This document shows, piece by piece, positions 3,421 through 25,055 of a stretch of DNA of 25,055 bases. Source of the stretch: Smittium culicis (Eukaryota > Kickxellomycota > Harpellomycetes > Harpellales > Legeriomycetaceae); the NCBI GenBank assembly GCA_001970855.1, contig LSSN01005465.1, positions 1 through 25,055 of the forward strand. Direction: 5' to 3'. Made by a program: the position numbers and the translations under genes. Numbering within the stretch: position 1 is the first letter of the stretch; every line of letters begins with the position of its first letter. A model generated the notes under the pieces. That model worked only from the letters and a program-made list of their open reading frames with translations, made no database searches and had not been told where the DNA came from.

Positions 3421-3547
3421 AACGGGAGTAAGGAAATAGAACGAAAAGCTTAGATATAACATGCTTTGTATAAGCTCAGGTTTATATAGAGATACTTGTA
3501 TTCTAGTTAATAAAGTTTATGTATGCTATGTACAATAAGGTTGCATT

Positions 3548-4610
3548 GATTACAATGTAATGGGAGATCGGGGTTCTGATTCGAAGATTATGAAAATTTG
3601 AGTCAAGCCCAAAACAATTTTATTGGAGATCAGATAAAGAAATTGCAACCTCGATATTTGCAGCTCAAGTTATAAATCATCTATCTGTAATTCATACTGT
3701 GAATAAGCTGAAAGTAGGTACAATAAAGACCAGCAAATTAGAATTTTTATATTAATTGAGAACTAATCAGAGGTATCTAGGAAATCAATGTTGTCTGAAT
3801 TAATAGAGTCGTTGGATGAGAATTTAATAAATTATTTTACGAGAACAAAACTGGATATTACTGCAGTAGCGAAGCTTTTTCTATTTCTTTTTTTAAAAAA
3901 AGATAATGAGGGGCGTCATCAGAGCTTATAATTAAGAAATAAAAGTGAAAAATATTTAAAATATCATCAGAAACATGGCTGAATTTGAGATAGTGGAATA
4001 TATCTTAATCGATGATTCAAGAACTCGCGTTATAAACGCAATACTATCTAGTAATAATTGCCATTGAGGGAAAGAAAGAGTAGAATTTATGGGAAAACCC
4101 CCATTTCAAATAGGCCCAACATTCAGATTCCATTCTATATCCAGCACTAGAGTTTAAGGCATTCAAAAAACTTGTAGAACTGAACTCGTAGCTCTTCACC
4201 GCGCGTCAGAAGTAAAAAAAAAAAACGGGCAGTAAATATGCTATTTAGATGTATCTAGGAATTTGATAAACCTCATTCAAATGATAGTAATATTGGATGC
4301 ATATATACGAATTGAGAGTTGATTGGGCGGGACCATAATAAACTTATAGCAAGTTTTACGGCGATTCGTGCCATACTAGCAAGCATAACGCCAGATTATC
4401 CTTAAATCATTTAGTACTGCACTAATTTTAGGGCAAGTTGTACTATGTTTGATACATAATATCGATATACTAGAACTGAGTGCAAATAGTTTGATTTGAG
4501 TCGATATAAACTTTGGATGAACTTTAAATGTCACCACTAGTCGAGATAATGTGTAATAATCTTTGCTGTGAAGAGGCAAATCAATTCCAAAAAAAAAGTT
4601 AAAAAATAAA
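3548..4610 (+). pseudogene. Possible continuation of a decayed coding region, unidentified
   Basis: Further protein-like + strand frames follow. At about 3570-3680 there is FEDYENLSQAQNNFIGDQ. An ATG at 3788 opens 47 codons to TAA at 3929-3931, with ELIESLDENLINYFTRTK. From ATG 3975 one frame runs to about 4390 with several stops and includes MAEFEIVEYILIDDSRTR and NLINLIQMIVILDAYIRIES. A shifted frame at about 4415-4500 reads ALILGQVVLCLIHNIDILEL. If these belong together they describe one long gene killed by stops and frameshifts. No domain is recognised. The minus-strand 94-codon frame at 4376-4660 overlaps this and looks like a shadow. Confidence 0.27.
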
Positions 4611-4660
4611 ATCATGGAATGATTAGTAGCTAGTAGTTCTAAAAAACAATAATTTATCAA

Positions 4661-6720
4661 TTTTCGCTATAAAAATATATTAAATTTCGATTTCGAATTT
4701 TATTGGATTTATTTTTATAGATTAGTTTAATTTTGAGTGTAATATAATAACTATTTTGAAGTCATCATTGTTATATCACAAGGGTATGCATCAACATTTA
4801 GGGTATACTTTTTTTGTGATAAAAATGCGTTTTCAATTATTTAGTTTATATGTCCATAACTGATAAATTTTAAATGCTGTTTTTTAAAAGTTGCTGGTTA
4901 TAATAAGAAAAATCAAATGTGAATTCGCTTGATATTGTAGATGTTATTAAAAGATTGCATCGTGCGAATACTGTTCAATAAGAGAGTTTACGTTGATTAT
5001 GCCGAGTGGATAATTTAAAAGTATATTTTATTAGATTATTCATATTAGTTTCTAATTCTGCACTTTATTCGTTTATTTAAATTTATGAACGAATTTTCGC
5101 ACTTCCTCTTGAAATTTTTCTGCTTTTTTTTTATTTTTTTATATCCAATCATTTATTTATTTTGAGGAGTAATCTAAATATCAAGTATTATCATTTTACG
5201 ATACATCTAGATATTCCAGATAAAAAATAAACCTCGAACAACACCCACCCCCCCCTTTTTTTATTGCGAGGAATGGTTATGAGTTTGGCATTCTTCACGC
5301 GCTAAAAAAAAAATAAGTTAGTGGTGATGATTTTGATATGAATTTCGGAAAAGGTAATATGGTTACTATTGCAATATATAGAGTGTGGGTATTTTTATTC
5401 AGATAGTCCTTAATTCTTTATATAGTTGTAGCATCTATGCTTTTCGATAAACACAATAAATAGTATTTAATAGAATTATTAGAGCTGCATTCAAGCAATA
5501 GCAGTTGGGTCAGGTATAACGCCCAATCGCTTTTCAATTTTATTTGTAACAGAATGGGATATATCGAATAAAATATAAAAAACAATAAAAAGCAAAGTGT
5601 TGGAGGAAGTTAGAGTTTTTTTAATTTGAAAATTAGCGAGGTGAAGAAAAAAAAAGAAGTTAATTTCATTGAAACAGATAGATTCAATTTCAGGAACGAA
5701 TGGACGGATCAAAAAATGATGTTTGGACTGATATGTTTGATTATTTCCGAGGCTAAATATTTCAGTATTTTAATAAAATGGCGGATCTTATACAGTTAAC
5801 TTGAACGCCAAACTCTATCACACCATTTTATACCGGGTATTCGCAGCATTTTTTGATGGCTTATATGACGTATACAGAAAATTTAAAATACTGTGTCTAT
5901 CAACGCACTATGTTTGGAAAAAAAATATGCAGATTTAGTTTACGGACAGGAGACTTGTTGGCATTAAAAAACCCCTCTCTCCATATCTTCCACGCCTTTT
6001 TTTTTTTTTTTAGTTTTTTGTAAGTGTTGTATTATGGAATCAAAAACCATAAATGATATTGGTGGTTTTGGTTGATGTGTTATTTAAAAGCGCCTTTTTG
6101 ATGGGATTAGTGACCCCTTCCCCCTTCATAAGCGCATTTTAACAAACAAACAAATTAAATAAAAGAAGTTTTTTAAGGAGTCTCCAAAAGATTAGGACAC
6201 GTCATTAATAAATTCCCATTTAATCAAAATTAGCTTCATCCGAATATTCGAAATAAACGATCTGGTGCGGTGTGAGAGAGGAGGGGAAAGAGCAAAAAGC
6301 AAAGCAAACGGTTCACAGAACTGCCAAAAAATAAAAAAAATAATAATAAAACCAACTGTGAGTAATATAAGTCATCATTACACCTGATACATCCATCATT
6401 ATTAAATTTATTTTTTTTTGAATTTTTTTGGCAGAATTAGTGCGAATAAATTTTAATGAGAGATTATGAGCAAAAAAAAAAAAAGAGCATTATTATTATT
6501 TTTTTTTTGTTCCAGATAAAAAGTGTATTAAGAGCTGATGAAGCTGGGGAAAATAAGTGAAAAAAAAAAAAAAAACTGATGAAATTATCGGATGAACATT
6601 AATACAATGCTAATTTGTCTAATAAGGGAGACATATGTTTTTTTTTATTATATTATTGTTGGCAGCGTATTTAATTATATGAGCTGTAAGGCAGCAATAT
6701 AGTAAATAGCGATTCATACA
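4661..6720. other. AT-rich spacer without a recognisable gene
   Basis: The stretch is dominated by A/T homopolymers and has C-rich runs near 5243-5255 and 6112-6125. An ATG at 5778 opens eight codons to TGA at 5802-5804, after which the same frame stays open to TAA at 6021-6023 (contains MAYMTYTENLKYCVYQRT). That length is within chance expectation and has no recognised homologue. The minus-strand 73-codon frame at 5491-5712 has a low-complexity composition and is not supported. Confidence 0.5.
6467..6474 (-). promoter_or_regulatory. TTTGCTCA octamer (Mac1-type copper response element match)
   Basis: TGAGCAAA on the + strand is the complement of TTTGCTCA, the element bound by the copper-fist factor Mac1 in budding yeast. 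It lies in the long spacer upstream of the copper-fist gene, far from its start, so any role is speculative. It also abuts a poly-A run, which raises the chance of coincidence. Confidence 0.2.
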
Positions 6721-6812
6721 TAACCATCCGTATAGTATAAAATGATTCACTCATTCACAATCCTCCATATAGTATAAAATGATTCATTTATTCATAATCC
6801 TCCGTATAGTAT
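6721..6812. repeat. 37-bp tandem repeat, about 2.5 units
   Basis: The block CC(G/A)TATAGTATA followed by AAATGATTCA recurs with its CC at 6728, 6765 and 6802, giving an exact 37-bp period. The third unit ends after GTATAGTATAC. The function is unknown; it is a minisatellite in non-coding DNA. Confidence 0.85.
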
Positions 6813-7644
6813 ACTTTTTTTTGATACTCGTCAGAAATTAGCTGGCTTTGTGCGATATAGATAAGATAAGTGAGTGTGTTGGGATGATTGTTTACTGCTA
6901 TTTGTAGCGGAATAGATTAAAAGCGGACAGTCACACCCTGTCATGGATATGTGGTCAATTTCAACCGTGTTTATGGATGGGCGGCCCCGCTTTATATCAT
7001 TTAATTCCTAAAAAAATATCAAGATACGAATAGTAGCGCGATTTAATTTAATTTTTTTAAAGGAGCGGCGTTTAATATACACTAAAAAATTTTTCGCTAG
7101 TAAAATATACTAACTTACGGTTCATGGTATAATTAAAAAAAAAAAATTAATCTCCTGGCTGTAATAAGAAAAAAAATTGTGGGATCATGAAACCCGAATT
7201 TTTAATAGCTATGAAAAAAAGAAATTTGGATTAAGTGCATTCATCGATTAATGTATATCTATACTAATAATAATAATATTTTTTTTTTTTACAAATCAGT
7301 AGTTTTTAGAGTTATTTAATTAAGATATAGAGACATTCTAAACGTATTTTCATTTTATTTACTGGAAGTGTACACTTAATAAGCTAAAAAAAAAAGATCG
7401 GTGAGCAAAACACGAAGTTTGATGTTGTTATTCATCCGACTAGTAAGATTGCAGAAAAATCGAAAAAGAGACAGAAAATAAGCTCATTAAGCTTTTCAAG
7501 TACCTAATAAGGGGTGCTTGAAATAGACAGTTCTTTATAGCATATGGGTGTATGTGTACATAAATACAAATGTGAATATGAATATAATGCGAGATTGATT
7601 ATGAAGAGCGGGATATTTTTTCTTTGAATGTCCATTTTTTGTAG
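6813..7644. other. AT-rich spacer, no gene seen
   Basis: No protein-like open frame or RNA gene was recognised. The stretch has several poly-A/poly-T runs and one exact TTTGCTCA octamer (listed separately). Confidence 0.5.
7402..7409 (-). promoter_or_regulatory. TTTGCTCA octamer (Mac1-type copper response element match)
   Basis: This is an exact TGAGCAAA in the sequence GGTGAGCAAAACACG. It is the second of three exact octamers in the spacer before the copper-fist gene. Binding is inferred only from the yeast Mac1 motif. Confidence 0.2.
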
Positions 7645-7842
7645 CCGACCCTTTCCGGTTCAACACTCTTTAAAAAAATTATAGTTATGATTCGTTTACT
7701 AATTAAAAGAAATTTTTATTATTTGCTGTTTATATACAGTATACCAATACTATTTAAAATATCTGAATTAAAGCATTTTAATTGGGCGCTGCTGACTATT
7801 TTTGGTAGATCAATAACAGTCTACTACCAGTGAATGGGTTAA
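7645..7842 (-). mobile_element. TTAA-type inverted-repeat MITE, copy 1 (reverse orientation)
   Basis: The copy begins ACCCTTTCCGGTTCAACACTC and ends GAATGGGTTAA (TTAA at 7839-7842), about 195 bp. Read on the minus strand it matches the other copies over its whole length. It carries the uninterrupted internal string GCATTTTAATTGGGCGCTG (7773-7791), which is the empty counterpart of the filled site in the copy at 22236. The left TTAA has mutated. It has no coding capacity, so it is a non-autonomous element. Confidence 0.8.
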
Positions 7843-7912
7843 TAATATTTCAAGTATTCAGATAGTGAATGGGATGGGAGGAGGGAGTGAGGGGTATAGC
7901 AAGGGTTTGATT
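7843..7912. other. G-rich linker with a G-quadruplex motif between two MITE copies
   Basis: Four G tracts at 7871-7873, 7876-7878, 7883-7885 and 7891-7894 are separated by loops of 2, 4 and 5 bases, which satisfies the standard intramolecular quadruplex pattern on the + strand. It lies between two inverted MITE copies. Confidence 0.6.
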
Positions 7913-8109
7913 TTAGCCCTTTCGCGGAAGGTAAACTATTTTTGACCCACCAGATATAGTCAACAGCGTTCAATTAAAATACTTTAATTCTGAGGCCTTA
8001 AGAGATGTTGGCATATTTTAACATAACAGCAAATTTATCATTTGCTTGTTAATCATAAACGAATGATTAAATTGATTTTTTTATAGAGTGTTGGACGGGA
8101 AATGGTTAA
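7913..8109 (+). mobile_element. TTAA-type inverted-repeat MITE, copy 2 (forward orientation)
   Basis: The left end is TTAGCCCTTTCGCGGAAGG and the right end is GAGTGTTGGACGGGAAATGG followed by TTAA (8106-8109). The length of 197 bp equals that of the other copies. The interior includes ACTATTTTTGACCCACCAGA and GTTCAATTAAAATACTTTAA, shared with the copies at 21595 and 22366. It is inverted relative to copy 1. Confidence 0.85.
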
Positions 8110-8977
8110 GCGAAGTCTAAAAATTGATAATTGGGATACAAATAAAGTGTAGAGAGATGGGTATGTGTACATATTGTAGATCAGCGAATAGTGTATGCTA
8201 TATAATAAGCGAATAGATGATAGAGTGATATGAGTAGATAAGCAGAGATTTATATTATTGGATGGAACACGGATACCGGATCTAACTTTTTTGGGAACGA
8301 ATTATGCGATTACCAAATACAAACAAACATACGACAATTATTTAATTTATTTTAGATGTCAAGCGCACAAACTTATATATGTTACATTATATAATGTATA
8401 TATAAATGGTTTAGATTAGCTAATTAGCGATTAATAACAATGAATTACTAATGTATGTAGTTATATAATAGCTGCAAATGAGAGGCAAGTAGGGGATGAG
8501 TGGGTATTTGATAAGCACATTCATCATAATTGCGAGAGCTGATACGTTTTTTTCTGAACAGACACGGAGGAGTATTTCTGTGCGCACTTACATGAGATTG
8601 ACAAACAGATCCAATAAAGATTTTTCAGTCAGTTGAATAGAAACGTAACTACAATCAATTTTAATTAAAGCTGACATTGGCACTTTAATTAAATAATAAT
8701 TAACATGTAAAAATAGAAGTTAGGGTGGGGGGGGAGAGGGATTAGATGAAAAGTTATGTCAGAAACAGAAACAATCTTTTGTAAATCAGTATTGTATTTA
8801 ACTGATCGGAGTAGGAGAGCAAAGTGAAGCCTATTGGTCGCTAAAGTGAGAATCCCAAATAAGAAATTATATCACCTTTCGGATTCCATAACCTTGGATG
8901 GTCGTATCAGTTATTACTGCTGCTGTTACTGCTTTATGTTTCAATAACCAATAGTCATCGCTTGCTTTTTCGCTTAA
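8110..8977. other. Spacer, no gene seen
   Basis: The stretch includes a 16-bp perfect palindrome TACATTATATAATGTA at about 8384-8399. It also has a second G-rich motif at 8723-8740 (GGG, a run of eight G, GGG). No protein-like frame or RNA gene was recognised. Confidence 0.5.
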
Positions 8978-9178
8978 TTATAAAAATGAAATGGGTATTA
9001 GTGGTGCATAAATCGGTAGTGCTTCAATTTCATGCTCTTCAGCTTTGCTTGCATTTTTTGCAAAAAAGTTTCTGAGCTTACTATACTTTATGAAATTATC
9101 TGGTACATCGAACAATTTATGCCTATTTAAAAATAGAGGTTTAACATACTCAAGTGCGATATTTTTCAGGCGAAATTG
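8978..9178 (-). pseudogene. Possible C-terminal coding relic, unidentified
   Basis: A 66-codon minus-strand open stretch without an ATG ends at TAA (8978-8980). It reads like real protein, for example ALEYVKPLFLNRHKLFDVPD and KAEEHEIEALPIYAPLIPIS. The same frame continues upstream beyond a TAG and a TAA to about 9290, where TTTATTTTATAATTTCAG resembles a splice acceptor. It could be the tail of a dead gene or of an intron-containing gene. It could also be chance, since stretches of this length are expected at this base composition. No family was recognised. Confidence 0.25.
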
Positions 9179-9339
9179 CTACCTAATGCACTTTATAAAC
9201 CTCAATTTGCTTCTAATGAATTAAGATAAAAATTGCTGGCATATTTTCTCAGGAATTCTATTTGAAGGTGTCGATTACTGAAATTATAAAATAAATATTC
9301 GGAATGGTAGATGATATGTTGGTTAGAAAAAGAAAAAAA

Positions 9340-9505
9340 AGTAATGCTTTAGTAATCGCCCAAATACAACAAAAATGCGTTCAATAGAAATTATGAAACA
9401 CCGAAAACCTTCGAAAATGATTGATTACTGTAGAATAGAAGCATATAAACACTTGCTTATTAATCAATTTGTTGTTACAGAGTGTTGGGATGGGAAAATG
9501 GCTTA
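9340..9505 (+). mobile_element. Degraded TTAA-type MITE, copy 3
   Basis: The right end AGAGTGTTGGGATGGGAAAA then TGGCTTA (about 9479-9505) matches the family end. The preceding CACTTGCTTATTAATCA matches the interior of copy 2. The left boundary is only approximate, and a deletion near the right end is likely. Confidence 0.5.
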
Positions 9506-10185
9506 GTGTGCAAGCGAGCTTAAGTGCCAGGTTTAGCAGCTTGAGATTGCCCTTACCAAGAAGAATTGCGCAATTTGTCGACTCAGGAAATAGCTAAACG
9601 CCGAGTTTCCAAATAGGTAATCACAATATTATACCCATTGATTACTAATCCTTCTGTTCTAATTACTTAATTTGATACTGCCCAAATTGCTGCTTAGGAA
9701 ATTTTATTGAGCTATAAAATTCGTTAGATGTATATAATTGGGGGGGAGGGGCAGGCATTTAATCGAAGCTCTCGTAATACACAAATGCTATAGGCAAAAA
9801 AATCTATTGCCAATGAATAAACATGTATGTAATGGCCAATATACAATATGAGTACTGCCCATTACCAAGCCAATTAGTTGACACTTCAATGTCTATCCGC
9901 ATTTGCAAAGTAGACTAGTCAGTTCAGCCAATTACAATGATGGAACAGCAAGCCATAATGATATCAAGTAATAGTTGGTATCTAAAAGCCAATAAGCCGA
10001 AGAGGATAAAGATGCTCCTAGAGAACAAAAACATTGAGCAAAAAGGTTGGCAGCCAGTAATAAGGGTTGGGTCTAGATTCCCATCGACATAAATAGCATT
10101 TTTTAAGACATCAGATAGGAAGGAAGATGCTTAATCTTCAGCTACCGGATCAAGTCATTCAATATTTTTTATAGTTAATAAACAG
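9506..10185. other. Spacer with clustered CCAAT pentamers, no gene seen
   Basis: Five CCAAT pentamers, four of them as GCCAAT, fall between 9809 and 9995. A run of seven G, one A, four G lies at 9740-9751. No intact open frame or RNA gene was recognised. Confidence 0.45.
10035..10042 (-). promoter_or_regulatory. TTTGCTCA octamer (Mac1-type copper response element match)
   Basis: This is an exact TGAGCAAA in ACATTGAGCAAAAAGG, the third exact octamer and 2.7 kb before the copper-fist start. Looser TTTGCTC matches occur at 6290, 8817 and 11292. Confidence 0.2.
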
Positions 10186-10355
10186 TTTAGTTCAGTTCAG
10201 TCCATCTCAGTTCAGTACAGCTCATCTCATCTCATCTCATCTCAGTTCAGTTCAGTTCAGTTCAGTTCAGCTCATCTCAGTTCAGCTCAGCTCATCTAAG
10301 CTCAGTTTAGTTCAGTGCAGCTTATCTCAGTTCATCTCAGTTCAGTTCAGTTCAG
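10186..10355. repeat. Phase-perfect pentanucleotide array, 34 units
   Basis: The array is 170 bp made of 34 consecutive 5-bp units with no indel. By count there are 13 TTCAG, 7 CTCAG, 6 CTCAT and 8 single-step variants (such as TTTAG, TACAG, CTAAG, TGCAG). It ends at CGCGC. It has no coding meaning because five is not a multiple of three. The function is unknown. Confidence 0.95.
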
Positions 10356-12243
10356 CGCGCTTACAAGTATTCAGGAATTCAAGTGATCATGCGGCTTTAT
10401 GCTAATATTATTAATGCCAAAAAAATATGCTGAAGTGATAAAAAGGGTTAATTGCCAAAAAAATAAAAATTAAAAAATAAAATAGGCAAAGTGAATGGGA
10501 TGGTGCGAGCGAAAGGAATTACAAAGATCGACACAACTACCCATTTAGGTACTATTTTGCGACCAATTAATTTGAGGCACTTTTTCAATTTGAAAATAAA
10601 AAAGAAAAATTAAAAAACTATAAATAAATTAGCGCAGTCAATTGTCGAGTTATTTTATTTTATTTTTTTGGCTCGATATCTATTTTAGTAATTTATGTAC
10701 TCTTCCATCCAAATATAATAAAATTAAAAAAAAACGATATTTCCAAAAAAAGCAATTGGTCGCTGTAAAAATTCAAAACGGTTGCCATAATTGTGACACT
10801 CTTATAGGTTGCGGATACTTGTAAATTTGTATTTCTATTTGCTTAATAAAATTAGGTAAAGGTAATAGTATTGGCTGTATCAGATAATTCATTCGATGGA
10901 TATATCCTAATTAGAACTAAATTGTAAAATAGTGCTGCAAAGTAGGAAGAAGTTAATAGAAAAAGCTCCGCTCCTCGAAATAGCCTTCCTAATGAAGTAA
11001 AAAAAAAGCTGTAAAAAAGCAAAAAATGGGCGCCGAGCATTAAAACTTAGACTCGAGGCTCCGGATTCATCAAAAAAAAAAAAAAATCCAGTAATTTTGC
11101 TAATGCGGTGAATAATTAAGCTAGCCAATTACTAGCCTTTCTGCTCAAGCTTCAATAATGGGCATTGCACTCTAAAACTTGCGCTGCTTGCTAACTAATA
11201 CTTTTTTTATAAAAAAAAAAAAAATGTTTGACGACTTCAAATAAGCCAAAACCTTTTTCTGCACTTCGGTCGTGTTTGTTGAGTTATTTTTTTTGCTCCT
11301 ATTAAGCCATGTATGTTACCTCCATGTAAACACGTTCATGCTTTTACAGCTACTGCACTTGCAAGAAGGGTTGGAGAGGAGGAATAGCGTTGGCTAGCTG
11401 CGTATATCCTTGATAATGATAAAATTTTGAGGAAAAGAATTAGGTGCTTGGGATGGAGCACCATTGCGTCTCCTCTCGTGGTATGGGGGTGGGGGGAATG
11501 AGGAGGATGAGTGAGTTATTTGTAAAGAGCACTGGATGAGGTTATGCTCGAATTAGGTTTTCCACTGCTCCAAATAATAAGCGATTCGTGTAACAGAGCC
11601 ATTTTCTTTGTCCAAAACATGTAGAAAAATAAAAAGCATAAAGCAAAGTATAATAGACACTCTGTCTGGACCGAAATTTATTCTTATAATAATAGTATAA
11701 AGCTAATTGGTCTATTCTGCTTCATATTCCAAATAATAACGGTTTACAATATACTCCGAAGTTTATATAAGAGCCATAAACCTCCTCCATTGGTTTAGGC
11801 AATAATCTCAGTTCCGCAATTACTGTAAAAGATATGACCACTGTTATTATTTTATTTGAGCCTTAAAGCTTTCTGTATTATAAAAACAAACGTTTTCTTC
11901 TATACTTATCCCTCGGAATAAATATATCACCCCACTTCCATTGGCCGCCTATATTGCCCAATCGCTGAACCTTTATGTCACCCAATAGGACTCGATACTC
12001 TCATGCTTTCTTAATCCTAATAAAAGGATGGCTAATGTTTATTACTTATATCCTATAATTTTGTTTTGCTTGTTATTGGCTAATTCTATATTCACGATTG
12101 GACGGATAATTTGCCAAGATTTAATTCTCTAAACGTAAATAATTTATGTTACTAATCAATAATTCTGTTCTATCCAATGGTCTTCCGTAGCGAACAAAGC
12201 TTAATTTAACGTAACATGAATTATTATCGTCAATTTAATTTCG
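10356..12243. other. Long spacer upstream of the copper-fist gene, no gene seen
   Basis: The short open frames at 10642, 10852 and 10907 are low-complexity (poly-F/K) and are not supported. The stretch has G-rich runs until about 11510 (for example five G, T, six G at 11485-11496), then becomes C-rich. CCAAT/ATTGG pentamers are frequent between 11700 and 12180. Confidence 0.5.
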
Positions 12244-12332
12244 TGTCAATATAATTCTTTGTCAATAAAATTTTTTTGTCAATAAAATTTTTTTGTCAAT
12301 AAAATTTCTTTGTCAAATTAATTTAATGTCAA
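12244..12332. repeat. 17-bp tandem repeat carrying TGTCAA, six units
   Basis: TGTCAA starts at 12244, 12260, 12277, 12294, 12311 and 12327, giving spacings of 16, 17, 17, 17 and 16 bp. The central units are near-identical TGTCAATAAAATTTTTT. A reverse copy, CATTGACAT, lies at 12352-12360. The array is 390-480 bp upstream of the copper-fist start, so it could be a regulatory array for that gene, or simply slippage. Confidence 0.85.
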
Positions 12333-12589
12333 TTTAACGTAACTGATTATCCATTGACATTCAAGCGCTAAATATATCTAATGCGGCCAAACTTTTTGCC
12401 CATCTTTTTTAATGCCTCTTTCTTTTTTTTTTTTTTGTCGATTAATAATCTAATAGAAATAAATAAAAAACCTCATTACTCAACAAAATAGTCAAATTTC
12501 CAAATAACGAATACTCAAAAGAAGAAAAATATTATCTATCCTGATCAACTACCAAAAAAGAAGTAAAAAAAGAACTCGTTTCCCAAATA

Positions 12590-12606
12590 AAAAATATATA
12601 TATACA
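12590..12606 (+). promoter_or_regulatory. Candidate TATA region of the copper-fist gene
   Basis: An alternating AT run (ATATATATATA) lies about 115-130 bp before the ATG at 12722, a usual distance for a fungal TATA box. A second candidate, TATATTTATATA, lies at about 12645-12656. The assignment is by position only. Confidence 0.35.
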
Positions 12607-12721
12607 ATTCTTTATCCCCAATACCCCCAGCCTTTTTCCAAATGCTATATTTATATACTCACTCAAAATATAATACACCCTCAATTAATCCTCACTCCAA
12701 CTACTGTATATATTAACCACT

Positions 12722-13891
12722 ATGATTATCGGAGGAAAGAAGTATTCTTGCAAACCATGTATCAGAGGCCACAGAGCCAACAAATGCAGCCACAGTTCTC
12801 GCGAACTAACTGAAATTAAAGCTAAAGGCAGGCCCCCAACCCAATGCAAAACGTGAAAGGACCTCCGCGCCTCAAAAAATATCCACTCCAAATGTATCTG
12901 TGGCAGCAAAAACGCCAGATCTAAATACTTAAACTACGCAGACAACTATAAAAACAACAAGTTTAAAAATTCTCGAGTCCATGAACTCCTCAACTTATGC
13001 GAATGCATTAACGGGCAGATATGTATCTGCTGCTCCGCCATAAAAAAAAACTCCCCTAAACCCGCCCTAAAAACCATCGACTACACCCTAAATAGCTCTA
13101 ATTTACATTACTCCCCAATGAAAGTTGCTATGAGCTCCCCAATTAAATCTGAATCTTCCATCTTTGAAGCTCTGCCCAACTTTAGAGACTTCGTCAAAGA
13201 CATCCAAACCGACCAGCACTTCTTATACTCAACCAACCCAATGTCCAGATCCCGCAACTCCTCATTCGCCTCCTCCTCATTCTCCGCAACTACCTCTCTA
13301 CCATACACGTTCTCCTCCTCTTGCTGCCCAAAAAACCCCATTTCTCATACTGACAGGCAAAATCAAGCTAACAAAAACAATTCCTTCTCAAGCATCAATT
13401 GCCTCAAAATGGATCCCCTAATAGGCATCGACCTACGAACAGAAGCTTCTTACTCCCCCTTCATGTACTCGCGCCTAAACTCCGCAACCAAATCCTCGCA
13501 ATACGGCGCCTTACTCTCCCACAACACACCAAAGTCCCACGCCTTCCCGTACAACACCTCCTCACCATCAAATACCAAAACGTCATCCTCTAATCGCGCA
13601 TGCTGCTGTTCATCCTCATCCAACAATAACCAACAAAACGGCCCTTCCTGTTGCTCATCTGCACCCAACAATAACCAACAAAATGGCCCTTCCTGTTGCT
13701 GCTCATCCGCACCCAACAATAACCAACAAAACGGTCCTTCCTGTTGCTGCTCATCCGGCTCCAAAATCAACACCTCCTTTGACTCGGATGGCGCCCTCGT
13801 CTGCAACTGCGGATGCTCAAAACCTTTGGCCGAATGCACCGACTGTTTCGAAGACATGTGCGAAGAACAGATCTTCAGGCCAATCATCTAA
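12722..13891 (+). CDS. Copper-fist transcription factor with one in-frame TGA at codon 45
   Basis: The ATG at 12722 begins a 389-codon frame ending in TAA. The N-terminus is a copper-fist domain, the copper-sensing DNA-binding domain of fungal Ace1/Amt1/Mac1/Cuf1 regulators. Zinc ligands are C10, C13, C22 and H24. IRGHR is at 14-18 and KGRP at 35-38. A CxxC follows, whose first Cys is C42 and whose second is replaced by TGA, then C58-x-C60. Another Cys cluster (C93, C95, C101, C103, C104) resembles copper-cluster CxC pairs. Residues 294-343 carry CC/CCC clusters separated by N/Q/G repeats. The C-terminus has C361, C363, C365, C372, C375 and C380. The frame continues undamaged after the TGA with the expected copper-fist residues. 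If TGA terminates, only 44 residues are made, or a 257-residue Cys-rich protein from ATG 13118 lacking the DNA-binding domain. Likely a nuclear factor. Identity is firm; functional status is open. Confidence 0.9.
12854..12856 (+). other. In-frame TGA at a conserved copper-fist cysteine position
   Basis: The codon sits in TGC AAA ACG TGA AAG GAC CTC CGC, encoding C-K-T-stop-K-D-L-R. Copper-fist proteins normally have Cys here (C-x-x-C before a K/R-x-L-R motif). One base change (TGC or TGT to TGA) explains it. Alternatives are assembly error, a fresh nonsense mutation, or recoding as Cys or selenocysteine. Confidence 0.85.
13621..13758 (+). repeat. In-frame coding repeat (N/Q then Cys cluster), three units
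   Basis: CAACAATAACCAACAAAA starts at 13621, 13666 and 13714, giving periods of 45 and 48 bp, both multiples of three. Each unit encodes NNNQQNGPS followed by CC or CCC and SS. The extra three bases of the second and third units add one Cys. The preserved frame suggests selection on protein. Confidence 0.9.
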
Positions 13892-14229
13892 TTCACACAT
13901 TTCCCCCCTCATAAAACTTAATATACTAGACTTTTTATTTCTCTTCCATTTATCATCCCCTCCCACCCACATCCAACGTACTTATAGCTTCCATACCATT
14001 ATATATATATATATATTTATATTTTTGTTAATTTTATCACAAGTAATAATAGTTTTCCATCCTACAACTAAACTTAAACCTCCACTTCTTATTATTGATT
14101 AAAGTTACTTCCACCTTTTATTAATACAAAAACTCCTATAAATCACCACCTCCTCCATATCGCATATATCGCTCCGTTCTCAATAACTATTAAAAGCGAT
14201 TTTAGAGCAAGAGCTTAGACACAAGATAA
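13892..14229. other. 3' flank of the copper-fist gene
   Basis: The flank is C/T-rich. A TATATATATATATATTTATA run at about 14000-14020 could serve as a yeast-type 3'-end efficiency element. I could not recognise a SECIS-type stem-loop here by eye. Confidence 0.35.
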
Positions 14230-14475
14230 TAAAGATTTAGAGACTAGTAATGAACTGAAAAAAATAAAGATTTAGAGGCTAGTAATGAACTGAAGGTAAT
14301 AAAGATTTAGAGGCTAGTAATAAGCTAAAGAAATTAAAGATTTAGAGGATAGTAATGAACAGAAAAAAAATAAAGATTTAAGGGCTAGTAATGTACTGAA
14401 GAGGTTAAAGATTTAGAGGCTAGTAATGTACTGAAGAGGTTAAAGATTTAGAGGCTAGTAACGAGTATCTATAGG
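14230..14475. repeat. 35-bp minisatellite, seven units
   Basis: TAAAGATTT(A) recurs at 14230, 14265, 14300, 14335, 14371, 14406 and 14441, so every period is 35 bp except one of 36. The unit is TAAAGATTTAGAGGCTAGTA followed by ATGAACTGAAG and a few variable bases. The units are contiguous with no unique spacers, so this is not a CRISPR array. Thirty-five is not a multiple of three, so it is non-coding. The last two full units are the most alike. Confidence 0.95.
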
Positions 14476-16229
14476 GAACGTTGAAATCTAAATCCGTGAA
14501 TCAGTATCCCACTTTCCCCCCCACAAAAATAAAATACATTGTTTAGTTGTTTTTTTTTTGTGCATACTTTAGCTCTTCCAATTAATCGCACCCAATATTA
14601 TTGTTGAACTGTATAGACTTTTCTGATATGTCTACAAACAATCAAAAATACTTTTTATTGTTATTTTTAGCGCTCTTCCCCTCCTCCCAATCCAACCAAA
14701 AAAAAAAACCCCCCATAAATTCTCTGGTGGAGAGGTGAGGTGAAGTGAGGTAATTGAGGGCAAAAGATTGCATTAATACCCTTTATTTTTCCTTATTTCT
14801 TCCTTCCTTAATATGCAAACAGCATTCTTATCAATTTGCAGGTTATGTACAATTGTGCTAAATTTAACATCAAGTATTCACTCGCTTGAAAATAAAATGC
14901 AAAAACAAAAAAACAAAAAAACAAATTTTATATTTAGGATATGTTTTATGTTTTAAAGACAATGTATGATTATTAGAGAATTATCCACACAATTACCCAT
15001 TCATCAAAAAAAAAAAAAAAAATTAAAATATTGGTCTGGGCTCATTACACTTGCTACTTTAACAAACTTGCTCATACAAAATATATAATAAATAAGTAAA
15101 TAAAAATAAAAGTCTTCCTGGATCCATACTCTACTCATTTTCGTTAACTGTCGAATGATCAGCGACTTTGTGCATTTTGAGATCTCTTTGCGATGGAGAC
15201 TTTATTTATTTTTTTTTTTTGCTATAATTAAAAGTATATACTTTAATAAAACTTCCCCTCATCCACCCATATATCCCATCCCCCTCCCTTTTTTAAAATA
15301 AAAAAAATTTCATGTTTAGGACAAAAAACGTTTCGTTATAGACTTTTTTATTTATATATTTTTTTTTTAAAAATTACTACATTCCTAATATACACATGTT
15401 GTTACTATCCATTCAAGCTTGTTATTTTTATAAAACAAGCGCTTGTCTTAAATTCGTTCAGTCCATTATCGGCATTTTATATGCACTTGAAAATGGGTTC
15501 TCCACGTAGCATATATCTATACTAAATAAATAAATAAATAAATAAATAAAAAGATGAATACGTAGTTAGATAAAATACTTCATAAATACATCCATCCATC
15601 ACCTACATTCTTCTGAATGCCTTTATTTCATTTTGGTTTTAATTTTTACATTCTCAAGAACTCTTTTGCTAATTCCACTATCGCTGCTACATTTTCTCTC
15701 TCGTCAAGAAAACTTTATTATCTGATAATAAAAATTAAAAAAAATAAATTTAACGCTTTTCAAATTTAATCATCGTTTTTGTCTATAGAAAGCTCTACTT
15801 ATGTCTGCTTTATAAGAACTAGATATTCTTATTTATTCACCAAATATTTATACTTTCTAATTTATCGCTAATCCACGGGCCCTCCCAAAAAATTCCTGCG
15901 TTGCTGTATATTATGTATTAGGTTATTCCGTCTGCTACTTACCTTTTATTAAACATCTGAGTCTTTATTATAACTTTCCCTCACCACCAATTCATAACCC
16001 TAATATTATAAGCTAATAAAAAAGGATACTTTTATCTTGAATTTTAATATAGATATAACATTCAAGCTGAAAAGTTAAAGACACTTAATTAGTATTTATC
16101 GCCCCAATTATTAATCATATCTCGAAACATTAAGTGGTAGAGAGAGATATCGAGGAACTTTGTTTCACCAAAAAAAAAAAAAAAATTATAGATATAAAAA
16201 ATATATAGAAGAAAAAAAGCTGTGTGATA
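14476..16229. other. Spacer and upstream region of the PH-domain gene
   Basis: The spacer is C/T-rich on this strand with many A/T homopolymers. It contains the palindrome ACAAGCGCTTGT (15435-15446; TAA/TTA flanks extend it to 20 bp with one mismatch). It also contains an (AAAT)n microsatellite of about seven units at 15523-15550. A 15-base poly-A (about 16170-16184) lies 45 bp before the start codon. No gene was recognised. Confidence 0.5.
15523..15550. repeat. (AAAT)n microsatellite
   Basis: About seven uninterrupted AAAT/TAAA units precede AAAGATG. It is a simple repeat in the spacer before the PH-domain gene. Confidence 0.95.
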
Positions 16230-19200
16230 ATGGATCCGAAATTCCAAAGATGTTATGCGCAGGGAATTCTGTCGAAAAAGAAGGACCTGGAGGTCGACGG
16301 CAAACCTTCCAAATCCAGAAAATGGACAACGCACTACGTAGAACTCATGGGAACCACTTTACACCTATACGAAGTCTCAAACTTATTCGCTGAAAAGCTA
16401 TCTGCCGTCCTTGAAGCCGGTCCGAACACGAAAAAAACGCTCCAAACCAACCCCGCTGAAATGACCGAAATCATCTCCCTAATCAAAGGCGGAAAAACCA
16501 TCTGTGCGCCCGTCGACAAAATCGATATCGCTTTTGCTTCCTACACTGCAATGGGAACCATCCGCAAACGCCCAAACAATATAGAAATCCTCACTGTTGG
16601 CCAAGAACGGTTCTACGTCACTGCTTCAAGCAAAATCCGCATGGACAACTGGGTCCATGCTTTCGATACCGCTGTTTCGGACTTTTCCTTCTACAACGAG
16701 CTCGTCACCCAAAAAACTCTCGTCAGCAAATACGCATACTTCCTCAACGACAGCCCTAACCCCGACCAGTTCCAAGTCCTCGTCCAGTTCGACCGTGATG
16801 CCGATCTATCACTCTGCGACCTCAAATGCAGACCCCATTTCAGTAAAGGCTTCGAGCTCGTCCTCACTAACTTCGCCAATGGCAAAAAAGGCTCCCAAAA
16901 AAACTCAACCGCCTCTAAATTCTTCAAGACCCCGGCTGAAGATATCGCTTGTTTCACCCTCATCAACAAAGCGTTCATCTACCCCGCCGCCGCCGACGAT
17001 ATCGATGATAACGGTAACTCTACAAACCCGAAAAAGAAATCTTCCGCGCCCGCAGAACTCACCAACTCTAAATTCAACCTCCGCCTAGTTGGTCTCATCG
17101 AGTACGCCCGCACCGTTAAGTCCAAATACGTCAAAACTATCGTCAACCAGATCTCGATATCGTTCAAGTCCGAACGCGAAATGTGCAACGCAATATCCAT
17201 CGCATCCAAACTCTTCACTTTGCCCGCATTCTCTTCCTTCAACACTATCGCACCTCACACTAACAGAAACTCTGCCATTTTCAACCAAAACGTCAACATC
17301 AACCAAACATTGCCCAACAACGCCAGACAATTTATCGCACAACCTGCACAATTACCAAATGACCAGTTCAACAGAAACTCTGTCATCATGTCTCCATCCG
17401 CCCAAATCCAGCAAAATCAAGGCCCACATGATTTCAATTCAAACTCTATTTCAAACAACCAAATAAACGCAAGCTCACCCAACATTGCAACATTCAACAA
17501 TATTGCTACCACAGACTCGCACACGCCCAATGTCCAAATTACCGACACCAAAACCGAAAATAAACATAACCGCGGGTTTATTAACAGAACCCTGAAACTA
17601 GGCAGCTTGTTCGGTAAACTTAAAAAGTCGTCCTCGGGAACGTTCAGCAAAGCAGAGTCTCAGCTCATCAAAGACACCGAAGCTAAAACTCCAACAACAC
17701 CAAATCTCGCCGATATCTTCACTCAGCCCGAAATTGAACCTATCACCGACAATACCGAAAATCAGCCCACTAAAGTCCCCGAATTCAAAGATTACTCCGC
17801 AAACCTCCCCGACCTCATGGAAGACGAATTCGACGCCGTAAAAATGATCGAGAAGTCTGTAGAAAACTTGTCTCTGTCCACAAACAAACAAATCGTCGAC
17901 CCGCAAATCGCCCAGCTTAATACCACCCAACAAAAAATTGATAATACACCCGAACTTGATGACGACTCTGACTCTGACAATGACGAACCGCTCACCAAAG
18001 CTTATCAAACTCACGTCAAAAATACCAGTCAGCTAGGAATAAACAGCTCCGTCCATCAACAAAACAATAATAATGCCCCTGCAGTAAACCAGCCACAAAA
18101 TACTTTCACTCAACCAATTAACTACAATGACACTCCTATCATGGTATCCGACGAAGCATCTAACGCTCTTCTCTACCAAAACACCGAATACGTCCAAAAC
18201 ATCAACCAATTTTACCCTGACCAATACGCAGATAACTTCAACAACAATACTGACGCCCACGCTCACGACGCTTTCAACAAAAACGAATTCGTCAACCCTG
18301 ATACTTTCCACCAAAACAACGTATTCTTTAACGGTAATGTCCCTGTTCCCGACAATTTTGCACCCATGCAAAATCAGCAAATGAACTACCCCGATTTCAA
18401 CGGCCAGTTCGTAAACATCCAGAATCCAAACATCATCCCTGACCAAAACTTCTACAACCCGCAGCTAGTAAACAATATGGGCCAGCGCTTCCCCAATAAC
18501 GGAATAAGCGAAATCCCATTAACCCAAATCGACTACCACGACGGTTTCGCCCAAAACGGCCAGCAGCAGTTCCAAGACAACATATTCGCACCCGCATTCA
18601 TCGAAGAGTCTGGCGGCCCATTACTAAGCATCAAAGCCAACAAAGTCATCACTGAAAACCATAAAGGCCTGATTGGCGCTATCGCAACGCGCGAACAGAT
18701 AAAAATCAACCAGAAATACAGAGACTCTAGCAGCCTCATCAAAGGCCGTCAGCTCCGCAAAACCCCCGACGCCGCCAATACGTTCAACGCAAACAGAGGC
18801 AGCAAAATGTTTACCGCCGACCCCGTCGCTGAAAACGTAAACTCGTGGCTAAACAGCGGATCTAATGACGATTCGCCTTTACCAAACACCACAACACCGC
18901 AAAGGCTCCGCAACACCAACTCTGTTTACTTCAGTGATCCTATGGTCAAACAACCTGGTATGGGTATCGACAATAACATCAATTACACACCCACCGGAAG
19001 ACCTAAAAGTCTGTTTTTTTCAAATAGCGTTAGCAACTTCAAAAACATCAACCACGGGCAACCAGGAAATATCTCATCCGTCAGAAACAGCGTTTTCAAC
19101 AGCTTATCCTCATACACAAACATATACCCAAACCAAGACGACGATTTACCCCTATCGTCCAATGAAGCATTGGCATCGGCTGGACTTCGCAACCCCAACT

Positions 19201-20003
19201 CATCAACTGTTTTCAAACAGAGTTTGAACTCGTCCCAGTATATGAACAGCTCGCCATTAAGGCAAAATAGCGGAACTCACCAAACTCATTCGAATAGAAA
19301 TTCTGCAATGTTCATGACAAATAACCGCAATAACGTCCCAAGATTTAACCTTAACCCCGCAAACAACGTCAGGTACGACGACCCCATGGCGCAGAGAAAT
19401 AATTTCGCCAATAACCAGCAAATGCAAAGAATGTACAACCAGAACCAAGTTCCTGATGGCGATGCCTATGGATACAATATGATGGAAAACCACAATAACT
19501 ACTACTCTGATGGATCTAAATCCAAATCTAACATGACTCTAAACTTTGCCTCTAACCCAAATATCCACCAATTCCAGCAAAAATCTCAGACCAGAAAAAG
19601 CATTAATGGACTAAACTACCAATTCGACAACACAAACGATGACTCTAATACCTTCACCATCGAAAAAAACAACAATCTCCGCGCAATTCCCAAACAACAA
19701 CAACCACCTGCCCAAAACCCAAAACAAAAATCTCTCGAGTTCGAGTACTCAATCAACGTCCCTGAAGCCGTCGCAATCAAGTTTGAACAGTTCCTCGACA
19801 CCTGCGTCGAATCGAAGCCGTACTCAAACACCTCCAGTAACGACATCTACCAAGCATACGTCAACTTTTGCTCGCGCAACGGTATCAAGCCCGATGACCG
19901 CGTCACCTACGACGATTTCGTTAAAATGCTCATCTCCACCGATTACACCATCAAAGACAACCGCAACGGCGGATATACCATATACAACGCTATCGTCGTC
20001 TAA
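16230..20003 (+). CDS. Large PH-domain protein, Caf120/Skg3-like, with N/Q-rich middle and primase-type C-terminal domain
   Basis: The ATG at 16230 (A at -3, G at +4) gives 1257 residues; a GTG six bases earlier is not a credible eukaryotic start. Residues about 10-150 form a PH domain, with GILSKKK, RKWTTHYVEL and the closing helix around W141. Residues about 175-335 (FQVLVQFDRDADLSLCD, then LRLVGLIEYARTV and FKSEREMCNAISIASKLFTL) resemble the second conserved block of fungal Caf120/Skg3 proteins, which are linked to CCR4-NOT or the cell cortex. A basic patch is at 445-466. The middle (about 340-1165) is disordered, rich in N and Q, with an acidic DDDSDSDNDE stretch and a helical, basic segment near 812-845 (GLIGAIATREQIK). 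Residues 1173-1257 form a compact domain (FEQFLDTCVE, IYQAYVNFC, NGGYTIYNAIVV) resembling the C-terminal winged helix of D5-type primases. Codons mostly end in C. The family call is by resemblance; the exact function is not established. Confidence 0.85.
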   Translation: MDPKFQRCYAQGILSKKKDLEVDGKPSKSRKWTTHYVELMGTTLHLYEVSNLFAEKLSAVLEAGPNTKKTLQTNPAEMTEIISLIKGGKTICAPVDKIDIAFASYTAMGTIRKRPNNIEILTVGQERFYVTASSKIRMDNWVHAFDTAVSDFSFYNELVTQKTLVSKYAYFLNDSPNPDQFQVLVQFDRDADLSLCDLKCRPHFSKGFELVLTNFANGKKGSQKNSTASKFFKTPAEDIACFTLINKAFIYPAAADDIDDNGNSTNPKKKSSAPAELTNSKFNLRLVGLIEYARTVKSKYVKTIVNQISISFKSEREMCNAISIASKLFTLPAFSSFNTIAPHTNRNSAIFNQNVNINQTLPNNARQFIAQPAQLPNDQFNRNSVIMSPSAQIQQNQGPHDFNSNSISNNQINASSPNIATFNNIATTDSHTPNVQITDTKTENKHNRGFINRTLKLGSLFGKLKKSSSGTFSKAESQLIKDTEAKTPTTPNLADIFTQPEIEPITDNTENQPTKVPEFKDYSANLPDLMEDEFDAVKMIEKSVENLSLSTNKQIVDPQIAQLNTTQQKIDNTPELDDDSDSDNDEPLTKAYQTHVKNTSQLGINSSVHQQNNNNAPAVNQPQNTFTQPINYNDTPIMVSDEASNALLYQNTEYVQNINQFYPDQYADNFNNNTDAHAHDAFNKNEFVNPDTFHQNNVFFNGNVPVPDNFAPMQNQQMNYPDFNGQFVNIQNPNIIPDQNFYNPQLVNNMGQRFPNNGISEIPLTQIDYHDGFAQNGQQQFQDNIFAPAFIEESGGPLLSIKANKVITENHKGLIGAIATREQIKINQKYRDSSSLIKGRQLRKTPDAANTFNANRGSKMFTADPVAENVNSWLNSGSNDDSPLPNTTTPQRLRNTNSVYFSDPMVKQPGMGIDNNINYTPTGRPKSLFFSNSVSNFKNINHGQPGNISSVRNSVFNSLSSYTNIYPNQDDDLPLSSNEALASAGLRNPNSSTVFKQSLNSSQYMNSSPLRQNSGTHQTHSNRNSAMFMTNNRNNVPRFNLNPANNVRYDDPMAQRNNFANNQQMQRMYNQNQVPDGDAYGYNMMENHNNYYSDGSKSKSNMTLNFASNPNIHQFQQKSQTRKSINGLNYQFDNTNDDSNTFTIEKNNNLRAIPKQQQPPAQNPKQKSLEFEYSINVPEAVAIKFEQFLDTCVESKPYSNTSSNDIYQAYVNFCSRNGIKPDDRVTYDDFVKMLISTDYTIKDNRNGGYTIYNAIVV

Positions 20004-20749
20004 ATTCCCATTACCCTTCCTACCCTTTAACTCTGTAACCTCTCTTAATTTATATCATCTTTTTTTTTTTGACTTCCTTTTTATACAAATTAATAATAAA
20101 CATATCTTTTTACTATTTAAAAAAAAAACTCTATTGAAATATTCTAGCTTTTCTATTTTTTTTTATTTCAGCTACTTGAACTATCCAAAATAACGATAAA
20201 TAGACAGAATAATGTTGAATCACAAAATTTTATCAGGTATGAAATAAAACATGCTCTACAAACAATAATTATTAAATGACTTTTTCAATTATGGTTTTTT
20301 GGTAGGTTCAAGAGACTTGGTTCTCGAAAAGGTTTATTAAAAAAATTATATTCCTGCTTTTTTTTACTAATTATACCCACCTCCCCCCAAAATTAGATAT
20401 TATTTAACTAAGTACGACCCATTTGATCCCATTTGGAGCTAGTTGGGAAATTACATTTCGGAAGAGTAAAAGAATAGCGTAAACAATCTTTGTAATCGTG
20501 TTAGATTAGGTACAGCGAATCTTAATTTGGTGCTCGCAACAGCAAAAAAGAATATTTTTGTTTTTAAATGTTGCCTGCTGTGCCCAAAGCACTTAACGTT
20601 CCAAAATTTAAGCTAATTTAAAGCCTCTGTGAACAAGAACCCTCCCCCCCCCCTCCAAAGACAGAAAATGTCGATTGTCAGGCGGGAGCTAGATTAAAAT
20701 TTTTTATTTTATTTTATTTTGTTAGTTTATATGTATTTTGAACTTTTGA
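20004..20749. other. 3' flank of the PH-domain gene, no gene seen
   Basis: The region is AT-rich with poly-T runs, and C-rich runs near 20380-20392 and 20640-20655. The 184-codon frame reaching 20193 is a shifted-frame shadow of the PH gene plus this flank. No RNA gene was recognised. Confidence 0.5.
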
Positions 20750-20945
20750 TTAACCTTTTCACGCCCAAAAAATCTTTAGAATAATGAATTTATTGATTCA
20801 CCATTAATTTATAGTTAATTTTATTATCTGATGCTACTATAATACAAACCAAAATTTAATTTAATTGCGTAATTATATGAGGGATTCTTTACGAAAAGTG
20901 CACTTTTATGGTGTAAAGAGTTGCAGAATATGAAATTTCATATAT
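20750..20945 (-). mobile_element. Degraded TTAA-type MITE, left end only
   Basis: TTAACCTTTTCACG (TTAA at 20750-20753), followed by CTTTAGAATAATGAATTTAT and TGATTCA, resembles the start of the reverse-oriented copies at 21539 and 22236. No matching right end was found; the end given assumes family length. Confidence 0.4.
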
Positions 20946-21011
20946 CATTTTTATCCAATAAATAAAATATAGTATTTTTTTTAGCAAATAATATTTTTAT
21001 AATGAAATAAT

Positions 21012-21210
21012 TTAACCCTTTCAGGGGCAGTTGGCCTTTTTTGAACTACCAAAATTATCCAACCAAACGGCAACATGATAATTAAATATATAATAATAAT
21101 AAATTATTGGCTGGTAAATGACAAAAATCCACTAACAAATAAATATATTATAGCTTACCCAATTATGATTTTTAATTAAGTTTAAGAGTGCTGGCCCCGG
21201 AAAGGGTTAA
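21012..21210 (+). mobile_element. TTAA-type inverted-repeat MITE, diverged subfamily, complete copy
   Basis: TTAA at 21012-21015 is followed by CCCTTTCAGGGGCAG. The right end is GTGCTGGCCCCGGAAAGGG then TTAA at 21207-21210. The total of 199 bp matches family length. The interior has diverged from the other copies, but the ends and the AAGAGTG subterminal string are shared. Confidence 0.85.
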
Positions 21211-21334
21211 AAGAACAATTAAAAAGCATTTCGAATTATGCCAATGGTAATTTATAATTTTTAATATTCGTTCCAATAATCATAAGCTGCAACAAAGCGC
21301 CCTCTTCGTTCAGAATCGCCCATATTATAATTAT

Positions 21335-21398
21335 TGAAAACAGTTGTCCATACTTTATTAGGTCAAAAAAAAAGTCTACCGCCCAGAAAAGGGCTTGA
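21335..21398 (-). mobile_element. TTAA-type MITE, right-hand fragment
   Basis: ACAGTTGTCCATACTTTATT, then AGGTCAAA and AGTCTACCGCCCAGAAAAGG GC, is the reverse complement of the forward end with its GGTAGACT string. The other end, expected just after 21200, was not recognised. Confidence 0.6.
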
Positions 21399-21538
21399 AT
21401 AATATCGTTCAAAAAATTCAGTATTACCTATAATTTATCATCTTCCGTTTTTTATATAATAATAACACTTGATTTACAAACAAATAATTTAATACCCAGA
21501 CTAATTATTTTGTTTGAACTTTGTAGTAAGTATTAAAT

Positions 21539-21925
21539 TTAACTATTTCCCGTAACCAGTCTTTGAAAAATTCAATTTATTGATTCATTTGTGATTAACC
21601 CTTTTCCGGGCGGTAGACTATTATTGACCCGCCAGATATAGCCAACAGAGTTCAATTAAAATGCAATATTTTAGAGATTTTAAATAGTATTGGTATACTG
21701 TAAATAAATAACAAAGCATAAATTTACTTATATATCGTAATCGAATCATAAAATTGGCTTTTTTAAAGAATGTGGAACGAGAAAGGGTTAATAATAAAAT
21801 TTACTATTTTCTATTGCTTTTCAATGTACAAATATTTCTTGACTTCGGAATTAAAGTATTTTAATTGAACACAGAGGGCTATATTTGGTAGATCAAAAAT
21901 ATTCTACCGCTTATGAAACAGTTAG
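21539..21925 (-). mobile_element. TTAA-type MITE (outer copy) split by a nested copy
   Basis: The left part (21539-21598) starts TTAACTATTTCCCG and matches the reverse orientation. The right part (21792-21925) resumes with TAATAAAATTTACTATTTTC and contains CGGAATTAAAGTATTTTAAT and TTGGTAGATCAAAAA, ending CAGTTAG. Removing the nested copy and one TTAA gives about 194 bp, the family length. Confidence 0.8.
21595..21791 (+). mobile_element. TTAA-type MITE, nested complete copy
   Basis: TTAA (21595-21598) is followed by CCCTTTTCCGGGCGGTAGAC. The right end is GTGGAACGAGAAAGGG then TTAA (21788-21791), 197 bp in all. It is inserted in the opposite orientation into the copy at 21539. The TTAA on both sides is the target-site duplication expected of piggyBac-type transposition. 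Confidence 0.9.
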
Positions 21926-22235
21926 TTCTAAATCAAAAATGATTTAATAAAACTGATATTTAATTTACTTATGAATTTGAAGTGCTTAATCACAATGGAA
22001 AATAAAATATGATTGTAAAAAATCAGAGAGCTAAAAAAAATATAATTCAAAAGCGGATTCTCCTTGAAATATTTATAATAAATGTGAACTTGGATCCGTT
22101 TATAATATGTTGCACTTTGTTTGTTTATTTTTAAATATGCAAATAAAAATGCGAATTCTTGTTTGCCAAAGTTTATTACACAAATTCATTTTCTACTATA
22201 CTCAATACATTTATGTATTTTTATTTGTTTGTACT

Positions 22236-24922: not shown

Positions 24923-25055
24923 AAAATTTTATGGAAATTTATCCATCCAGAAGAACCATTTTTATTTATATTAAACTTTTAGAATAGTATTTTTTAACAA
25001 TTATGAATATTTTTATAATGGGTATTGTCCTATTTAAATAAGGTTTTAAATCAAA
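24923..25055. other. 3' flank of the transpeptidase gene
   Basis: AT-rich sequence with TTTTTATTTATATTAAAC about 35-50 bp after the stop codon, suitable for a fungal 3'-end signal. Nothing else is seen before the window ends. Confidence 0.4.

What the first reader, a model, noticed from the sequence alone, without database searches (positions are those of the whole stretch)
12854..12856. A TGA codon replaces a conserved cysteine in an otherwise intact copper sensor
The copper-fist frame is open for 389 codons except for TGA at codon 45, which falls where copper-fist proteins carry the second Cys of a C-x-x-C following KGRP. The domain continues correctly afterwards (K-D-L-R, then C-x-C), three downstream Cys-rich repeats keep frame, and no other lesion is present. 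A long-dead gene should show more damage. TGA in place of a metal-binding Cys fits selenocysteine recoding (which I recall being reported in a few early-branching fungi), Cys recoding, regulated readthrough, a very recent nonsense mutation, or a sequencing error. A selenocysteine in a copper-binding transcription factor would be new. I saw no obvious SECIS element, which counts against that option.
Basis: partly seen in the sequence, partly recalled or inferred. Interest (0 to 1): 0.85.

Follow-up and report, generated by a model that had tools for sequence, protein, structure and literature searches.

The report
Stop codon in one copper-sensor copy
A stop codon in the copper-sensor gene of an insect-gut fungus is absent from a second, nearly identical copy of the same region in the same genome assembly, so it is most likely an ordinary gene-breaking mutation on one copy rather than a recoded amino acid.

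Summary
The copper-fist frame 12722-13891 is open for 389 codons except for TGA at codon 45 (12854-12856), at the second Cys of the C-x-x-C after KGRP. Of 49 proteins returned by a homologue search, 46 align here and all 46 have Cys; 3 did not align. The host is a Smittium-like gut fungus (Harpellales). It does use selenocysteine (Sec): its genome has a UCA-anticodon tRNA-Sec, SepSecS, and a SelenoH gene whose CxxU codon is TGA on both contigs carrying it. The host therefore does not rule Sec out. The same assembly argues strongly against it: contig C1557 (11,643 bp) matches window 10360-22007 end to end at 99.69% and carries the gene intact, with a Cys codon at position 45. The gene copies differ at three bases; two are silent and the third makes this TGA. 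The closest homologue (Smittium culicis, 83%) also has Cys. Most likely this is a heterozygous premature stop; a base error in one contig is the main rival. Sec keeps about 3%, because the SECIS tests have no power here: SelenoH also scores negative.

The parts
12722..13891 (+). copper-fist transcription factor gene (CRF1/Cuf1/Ace1-like), 389 codons + TAA, interrupted in this copy at codon 45
   Evidence: PF00649, 65.6 bits on the intact copy; 83% to Smittium culicis CRF1
12854..12856 (+). TGA at codon 45; the near-identical copy on contig C1557 has a Cys codon here
12722..12835 (+). N-terminal copper-fist zinc module (Pfam match, residues 1-38), upstream of the stop
13118..13891 (+). downstream ATG-started frame of 257 codons; the protein collection lists this piece (P0002) as the window's protein; it lacks the whole copper fist
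13603..13757 (+). in-frame 48-bp repeat, about 3.3 copies, encoding Cys-rich units
10360..22007 (+). stretch present twice in the assembly: matched end to end by contig C1557 (11,643 bp), 99.69% identity, 29 mismatches, 5 gap openings
10183..10355 (+). pentamer array ending just before the point where C1557 begins; a likely cause of the contig break

Best explanation
The TGA is a premature stop created by one recent base change on one of two near-identical copies, most likely the two alleles of a diploid Harpellales fungus. Shown: the other copy in the assembly is intact with Cys at this codon, and no other protein difference separates the copies. Inferred: that the two contigs are allelic; that the TGA allele makes only a 44-residue peptide or an unstable mRNA; and that the intact allele supplies the copper sensor, so the lesion is tolerated as a recessive null.
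For: C1557 is wholly contained in window 10360-22007 at 99.69% identity. Of its 29 mismatches, 3 lie in the copper-fist gene (two silent plus this TGA), 0 in the 3,774-bp PH-like gene and 26 outside these two genes. Cys is found in S. culicis and Coemansia, and in 46 of 46 alignable proteins of 49 returned, so Cys is ancestral. Near-identical contig pairs occur elsewhere in this assembly: all 4 pairs that I picked because their hits looked alike, plus the SelenoH pair, match at 98.8-99.95% over their main blocks; one pair also has a 1.2-kb block at 94.2%. Eight of nine Harpellales genomes are reported as probably diploid, with SNP ratios of 0.41-0.75% (PMC5954228, passages seen). There is no sign of general TGA reassignment: the PH-like gene (1257 codons) and the gamma-glutamyltransferase gene (618 codons) have no in-frame TGA, and the 5 SepSecS pieces have no stop inside.
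Against: No reads are available, so allelism and the base itself are not proven. Window 5000-10359 and 22008-25055 show no second full-length copy (1-4999 was not searched), so the duplication is local: either a partly collapsed diploid assembly or a local duplication. Divergence here (29 mismatches in 11.65 kb, about 0.25%) is below the published read-based range of 0.41-0.75%. SepSecS was found on a single contig.
Confidence: 0.75

Rival explanations
1. Base-call or assembly error in contig C2199: the true sequence has Cys on both copies.
For: It is the only protein-level difference between the copies; the altered base starts a short A run; the assembly is fragmented, 2529 contigs.
Against: The two contigs differ at 28 other bases and 5 gaps, so they look like distinct haplotypes rather than error copies of one sequence, and the two other coding differences are ordinary silent changes.
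Confidence: 0.13
2. Recent segmental duplication: C1557 is a second locus, and the window's copy is an early pseudogene.
For: The flanking stretches 5000-10359 and 22008-25055 show no second full-length copy.
Against: C1557 is free-standing, and both its ends are identical to the window, with no novel junction; it starts just after a pentamer array; other near-identical contig pairs occur in the assembly.
Confidence: 0.07
3. Selenocysteine recoding: TGA is read as Sec, giving a Sec-containing copper sensor.
For: The host has tRNA-Sec with anticodon TCA, SepSecS and a SelenoH gene with TGA in CxxU on both contigs that carry it. Sec use by Harpellales is reported (PMC12611240, passages; PMC10386755, passages). 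The residue replaced is a conserved Cys of the copper-regulatory part.
Against: The other copy has Cys; the closest homologue and 46 of 46 alignable proteins have Cys. No SECIS by Rfam at E up to 10, and only one weak SECIS-like hit by my scan, identical in both copies; both methods also fail on SelenoH, so this counts little. No unusually stable structure next to the TGA. By contrast, SelenoH keeps TGA on both contigs although these differ at 16 bases.
Confidence: 0.03
4. Stop-codon readthrough or another recoding inserts a standard amino acid.
For: The frame stays open downstream.
Against: A recent change on one copy explains the open frame. The codon after TGA is AAG, not the leaky CUA context (recalled). 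The 46 alignable relatives have Cys here, not a stop, though relatives with a stop could be cut short in databases and missed.
Confidence: 0.02

Closest known systems
Copper resistance protein CRF1 of Smittium culicis (P0001)
   Same: 390 aa, 83% identical over the whole length, same N-terminal Cys layout
   Different: Cys at residue 45 instead of a stop
Copper-fist regulators Ace1/Cup2, Amt1, Cuf1
   Same: N-terminal zinc module matched to Amt1, PDB 1co4; C-x-x-C then C-x-C after it, the place of the copper regulatory domain (zinc module and copper regulatory domain described in PMC3338643 and PMC5234253, passages)
   Different: the window's copy stops just after the zinc module
Fungal SelenoH, reported as shared among Harpellales (PMC12611240, passages)
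   Same: in-frame TGA at the second Cys position of a C-x-x-C, in the same genome
   Different: SelenoH has TGA on both contigs; for the copper-fist gene one contig has Cys. SelenoH is a redox-fold protein (recalled), not a transcription factor

Membership tests
Copper-fist transcription factors (PF00649) | match to the copper-fist model above the curated cut-off | tested here: met
   65.6 bits vs cut-off 25 on the intact copy; 69 bits on both copies in the genome search
Copper-fist transcription factors (PF00649) | KGRP followed by C-x-x-C and C-x-C | tested here: not met
   met by the intact copy C1557; in the window's copy the second Cys codon of C-x-x-C is TGA
Eukaryotic selenoproteins | host has Sec machinery | tested here: met
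   tRNA-Sec (58.3 bits vs cut-off 47, anticodon TCA; the tRNA-Sec model also rang in all 14 control genomes, over the cut-off in 5) and SepSecS (5 pieces, best 5.5e-42; rang in 3 controls). SPS: pieces below the cut-off, and the model rang in all 14 controls. PSTK: 28.6 bits, below the cut-off. eEFSec search uninformative
Eukaryotic selenoproteins | SECIS element in the 3' UTR | tested here: inconclusive
   none by Rfam, one weak candidate by own scan, the same in both copies; the positive control SelenoH also gave none
Eukaryotic selenoproteins | TGA conserved in alleles and orthologues | tested here: not met
   Cys in the second copy and in 46 of 46 alignable proteins of 49 returned; caveat: orthologues with TGA could be truncated in protein databases and missed
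Eukaryotic selenoproteins | full-length Se-containing product | not testable with these tools
   needs mass spectrometry or 75Se labelling
Heterozygous nonsense alleles | an otherwise identical intact allele in the same individual | tested here: inconclusive
   an intact 99.69% copy exists in the assembly, but allelism (versus duplication) needs reads

The most novel reading that the evidence does not exclude
A Cys/Sec polymorphism: in a Sec-using fungus one allele of a copper sensor encodes Cys and the other Sec at a conserved Cys of the copper-regulatory part, using recoding signals in Harpellales that standard SECIS models do not recognise.
Probability: 0.03. Interest if true: 0.88.

Novelty: new member of a known kind. 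Interest (0 to 1): 0.14.

Why it matters
As a heterozygous premature stop it is ordinary. Its use is as a caution. In a Sec-using, probably diploid fungus whose assembly holds some regions twice, an in-frame TGA at a Cys position can look like a new selenoprotein, and comparing the second copy in the same assembly settles most of the question. If Sec insertion were shown after all, it would be the first Sec-containing copper-sensing transcription factor that I know of. Full-text searches for 'selenocysteine' with 'copper fist' and with 'copper-fist' found 0 papers in the held library; 'selenoprotein' + 'copper sensor' + 'transcription factor' + 'fungi' found 1, a review of mammalian copper (listing only).

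Tried and rejected
Absence of Sec machinery as a refutation was rejected: tRNA-Sec and SepSecS are present. The SECIS test was rejected as decisive: Rfam and my scanner both find none at the SelenoH gene. From memory, Mariotti 2019 says most fungal selenoproteins lack consensus SECIS; that paper is not held, so this is recalled, and a search for 'fungal selenoproteins' found no paper. An intron hiding the TGA was rejected: the intact copy reads straight through this codon. Genome-wide TGA reassignment was rejected: no in-frame TGA in the two other long window genes or stop in the SepSecS pieces. A fold z-score scan (100-base windows, 30-base steps, listing z below -1.8) found nothing next to the TGA and nothing in the SelenoH stretch scanned. 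The first SelenoH search (PF10262) gave only one sub-threshold hit (E 0.43) that by eye reads like a retroelement; TIGR02174 then found the gene. Species identity was not resolved: 56.3 Mb in 2529 contigs does not fit the size of any of the nine assemblies tabulated in PMC5954228 (passages). A copper-fist search limited to residues 1-110 returned only S. culicis. NCBIfam gave no family for the copper-fist protein.

Full report
What is there. Its frame 12722-13891 encodes a copper-fist transcription factor: 389 codons, a terminal TAA and one internal stop, TGA at codon 45 (12854-12856). The stop stands at the second Cys of C-x-x-C after KGRP. A profile search built on three sequences returned 49 proteins. 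Of these, 46 align with residues 1-110 and all 46 have Cys at columns 42, 45, 58 and 60; P0002 (the window's own 257-residue downstream fragment), P0004 and P0005 gave no alignment.

Host. The closest homologue is CRF1 of Smittium culicis, 83% identical over the full length and with Cys at this place. Most of the next best are Coemansia, another Kickxellomycotina genus (placement of Coemansia recalled), with a more distant Smittium megazygosporum protein among them. The host is therefore a Smittium-like Harpellales fungus, a gut symbiont of insect larvae. The exact species was not resolved: the nine Harpellales assemblies tabulated in PMC5954228 (passages) have other sizes.

The host uses selenocysteine. 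The genome has a tRNA-Sec (58.3 bits, over the cut-off of 47; anticodon TCA). The tRNA-Sec model rings in all 14 control genomes, over the cut-off in 5; the other four hits here are sub-threshold, and ARAGORN finds tRNA-Ser at each. SepSecS is present in five pieces on one contig. SelD-like pieces lie below the cut-off, and that model rang in all 14 control genomes, so SPS is not established. PSTK gave one sub-threshold hit. The eEFSec search rang nowhere, controls included, and is uninformative. A SelenoH gene lies on two contigs, C1547 and C2495, and on both its CxxU codon is TGA. Passages in two papers state that Harpellales use Sec, and one that they share SelenoH (PMC12611240; PMC10386755). 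The primary paper, Mariotti 2019, was not held.

The deciding comparison. A search of the genome with the gene's own DNA gives two places: the window and contig C1557. The whole of C1557 (11,643 bp) matches window 10360-22007 at 99.69%, with 29 mismatches and 5 gap openings. Within the copper-fist gene the copies differ at three bases. Two are silent; the third is the TGA, where C1557 has a Cys codon. The proteins differ at no other residue. The neighbouring PH-like gene (Pfam PH 22.7 bits, just under its cut-off of 25.1) has no difference over 3,774 bp, and the other 26 mismatches lie outside these two genes. Cys in the second copy, in S. culicis and in all aligned proteins makes Cys the ancestral state, and TGA a young change on one copy.

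Alleles or duplicates. Four contig pairs whose hits looked alike were fetched and compared; all four contain near-identical stretches (main blocks 98.8-99.95%, one further block of 1.2 kb at 94.2%), and the SelenoH contigs match at 98.9% over 2.1 kb. These pairs were picked because they looked alike, so they show that such pairs exist, not how frequent they are. In an ORF comparison of six pairs (for C1557 only its first 10 kb), the copper-fist gene was the only likely real gene broken in one copy. One frame overlapping the end of the PH-like gene also changed length, and the five other pairs held only 7 frames of 100 codons or more on each side, a small control. PMC5954228 reports SNP ratios of 0.41-0.75% and allele frequencies around 50% for eight of nine Harpellales, and infers diploidy (passages). 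C1557 is free-standing, starts just after a pentamer array, and both its ends are identical to the window. Alleles are therefore favoured. Against this, the outer stretches searched (5000-10359 and 22008-25055) have no second full-length copy, and divergence here (about 0.25%) is below the published range; a local duplication is not excluded.

Tests of recoding. Rfam at E up to 10 finds no SECIS in 12600-16200. My own scan of the 1,009 bases after the stop finds one weak SECIS-like hairpin (-4.4 kcal/mol) at about 14432-14484, at the end of the tandem array, and the same in both copies. The same two methods on the SelenoH 3' region find nothing, so they have no power in this fungus. A z-score scan in 100-base windows finds no unusually stable element next to the TGA; two mildly stable windows (from 13052 and 14072) occur equally in both copies. 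The case against Sec therefore rests on the Cys in the second copy and in relatives, and on the contrast with SelenoH, not on SECIS.

How it most likely works. Translation of the TGA copy ends just after the zinc module and yields a 44-residue peptide or a decaying mRNA (inferred). The 257-residue frame starting downstream at 13118 lacks the DNA-binding part and is what the protein collection lists for the window (P0002). The intact copy supplies the regulator (inferred). Probabilities: heterozygous stop 0.75, base error 0.13, recent duplication 0.07, Sec 0.03, readthrough 0.02.

Verdict. This is an ordinary premature stop on one copy, or an error, in an interesting host. Interest is low.

Noticed in passing
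L024:398-625 (contig C1547) and L025:1501-1728 (contig C2495): A SelenoH gene with TGA in its CxxU motif on two contigs whose 2.1-kb overlap differs at 16 bases; no SECIS found by Rfam (C1547 copy) or by a simple scan of both.
   Followed up: partly
window 7648-8109 and 22236-22561: Part of a dispersed repeat family, matches of about 200 bp in both orientations; 146 and 155 matches reported in the genome, many of them one place read on both strands and some in the window itself. Looks like a short inverted-repeat (MITE-like) element.
   Followed up: no
window 14223-14461: A 35-bp tandem array, 6.8 copies, about 330 bases downstream of the copper-fist stop codon.
   Followed up: no
window 10183-10355: A pentamer (CAGTT-like) array of about 35 units, ending just before the point where contig C1557 begins.
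   Followed up: partly
window 1500-1922, minus strand: A 70-codon frame and its broken continuation that look by eye like a retrotransposon gag remnant.
   Followed up: no
window 23066-24922: Intact gamma-glutamyltransferase gene (PF01019, 573 bits); another contig, C1498, matches part of it at 65% DNA identity.
   Followed up: no
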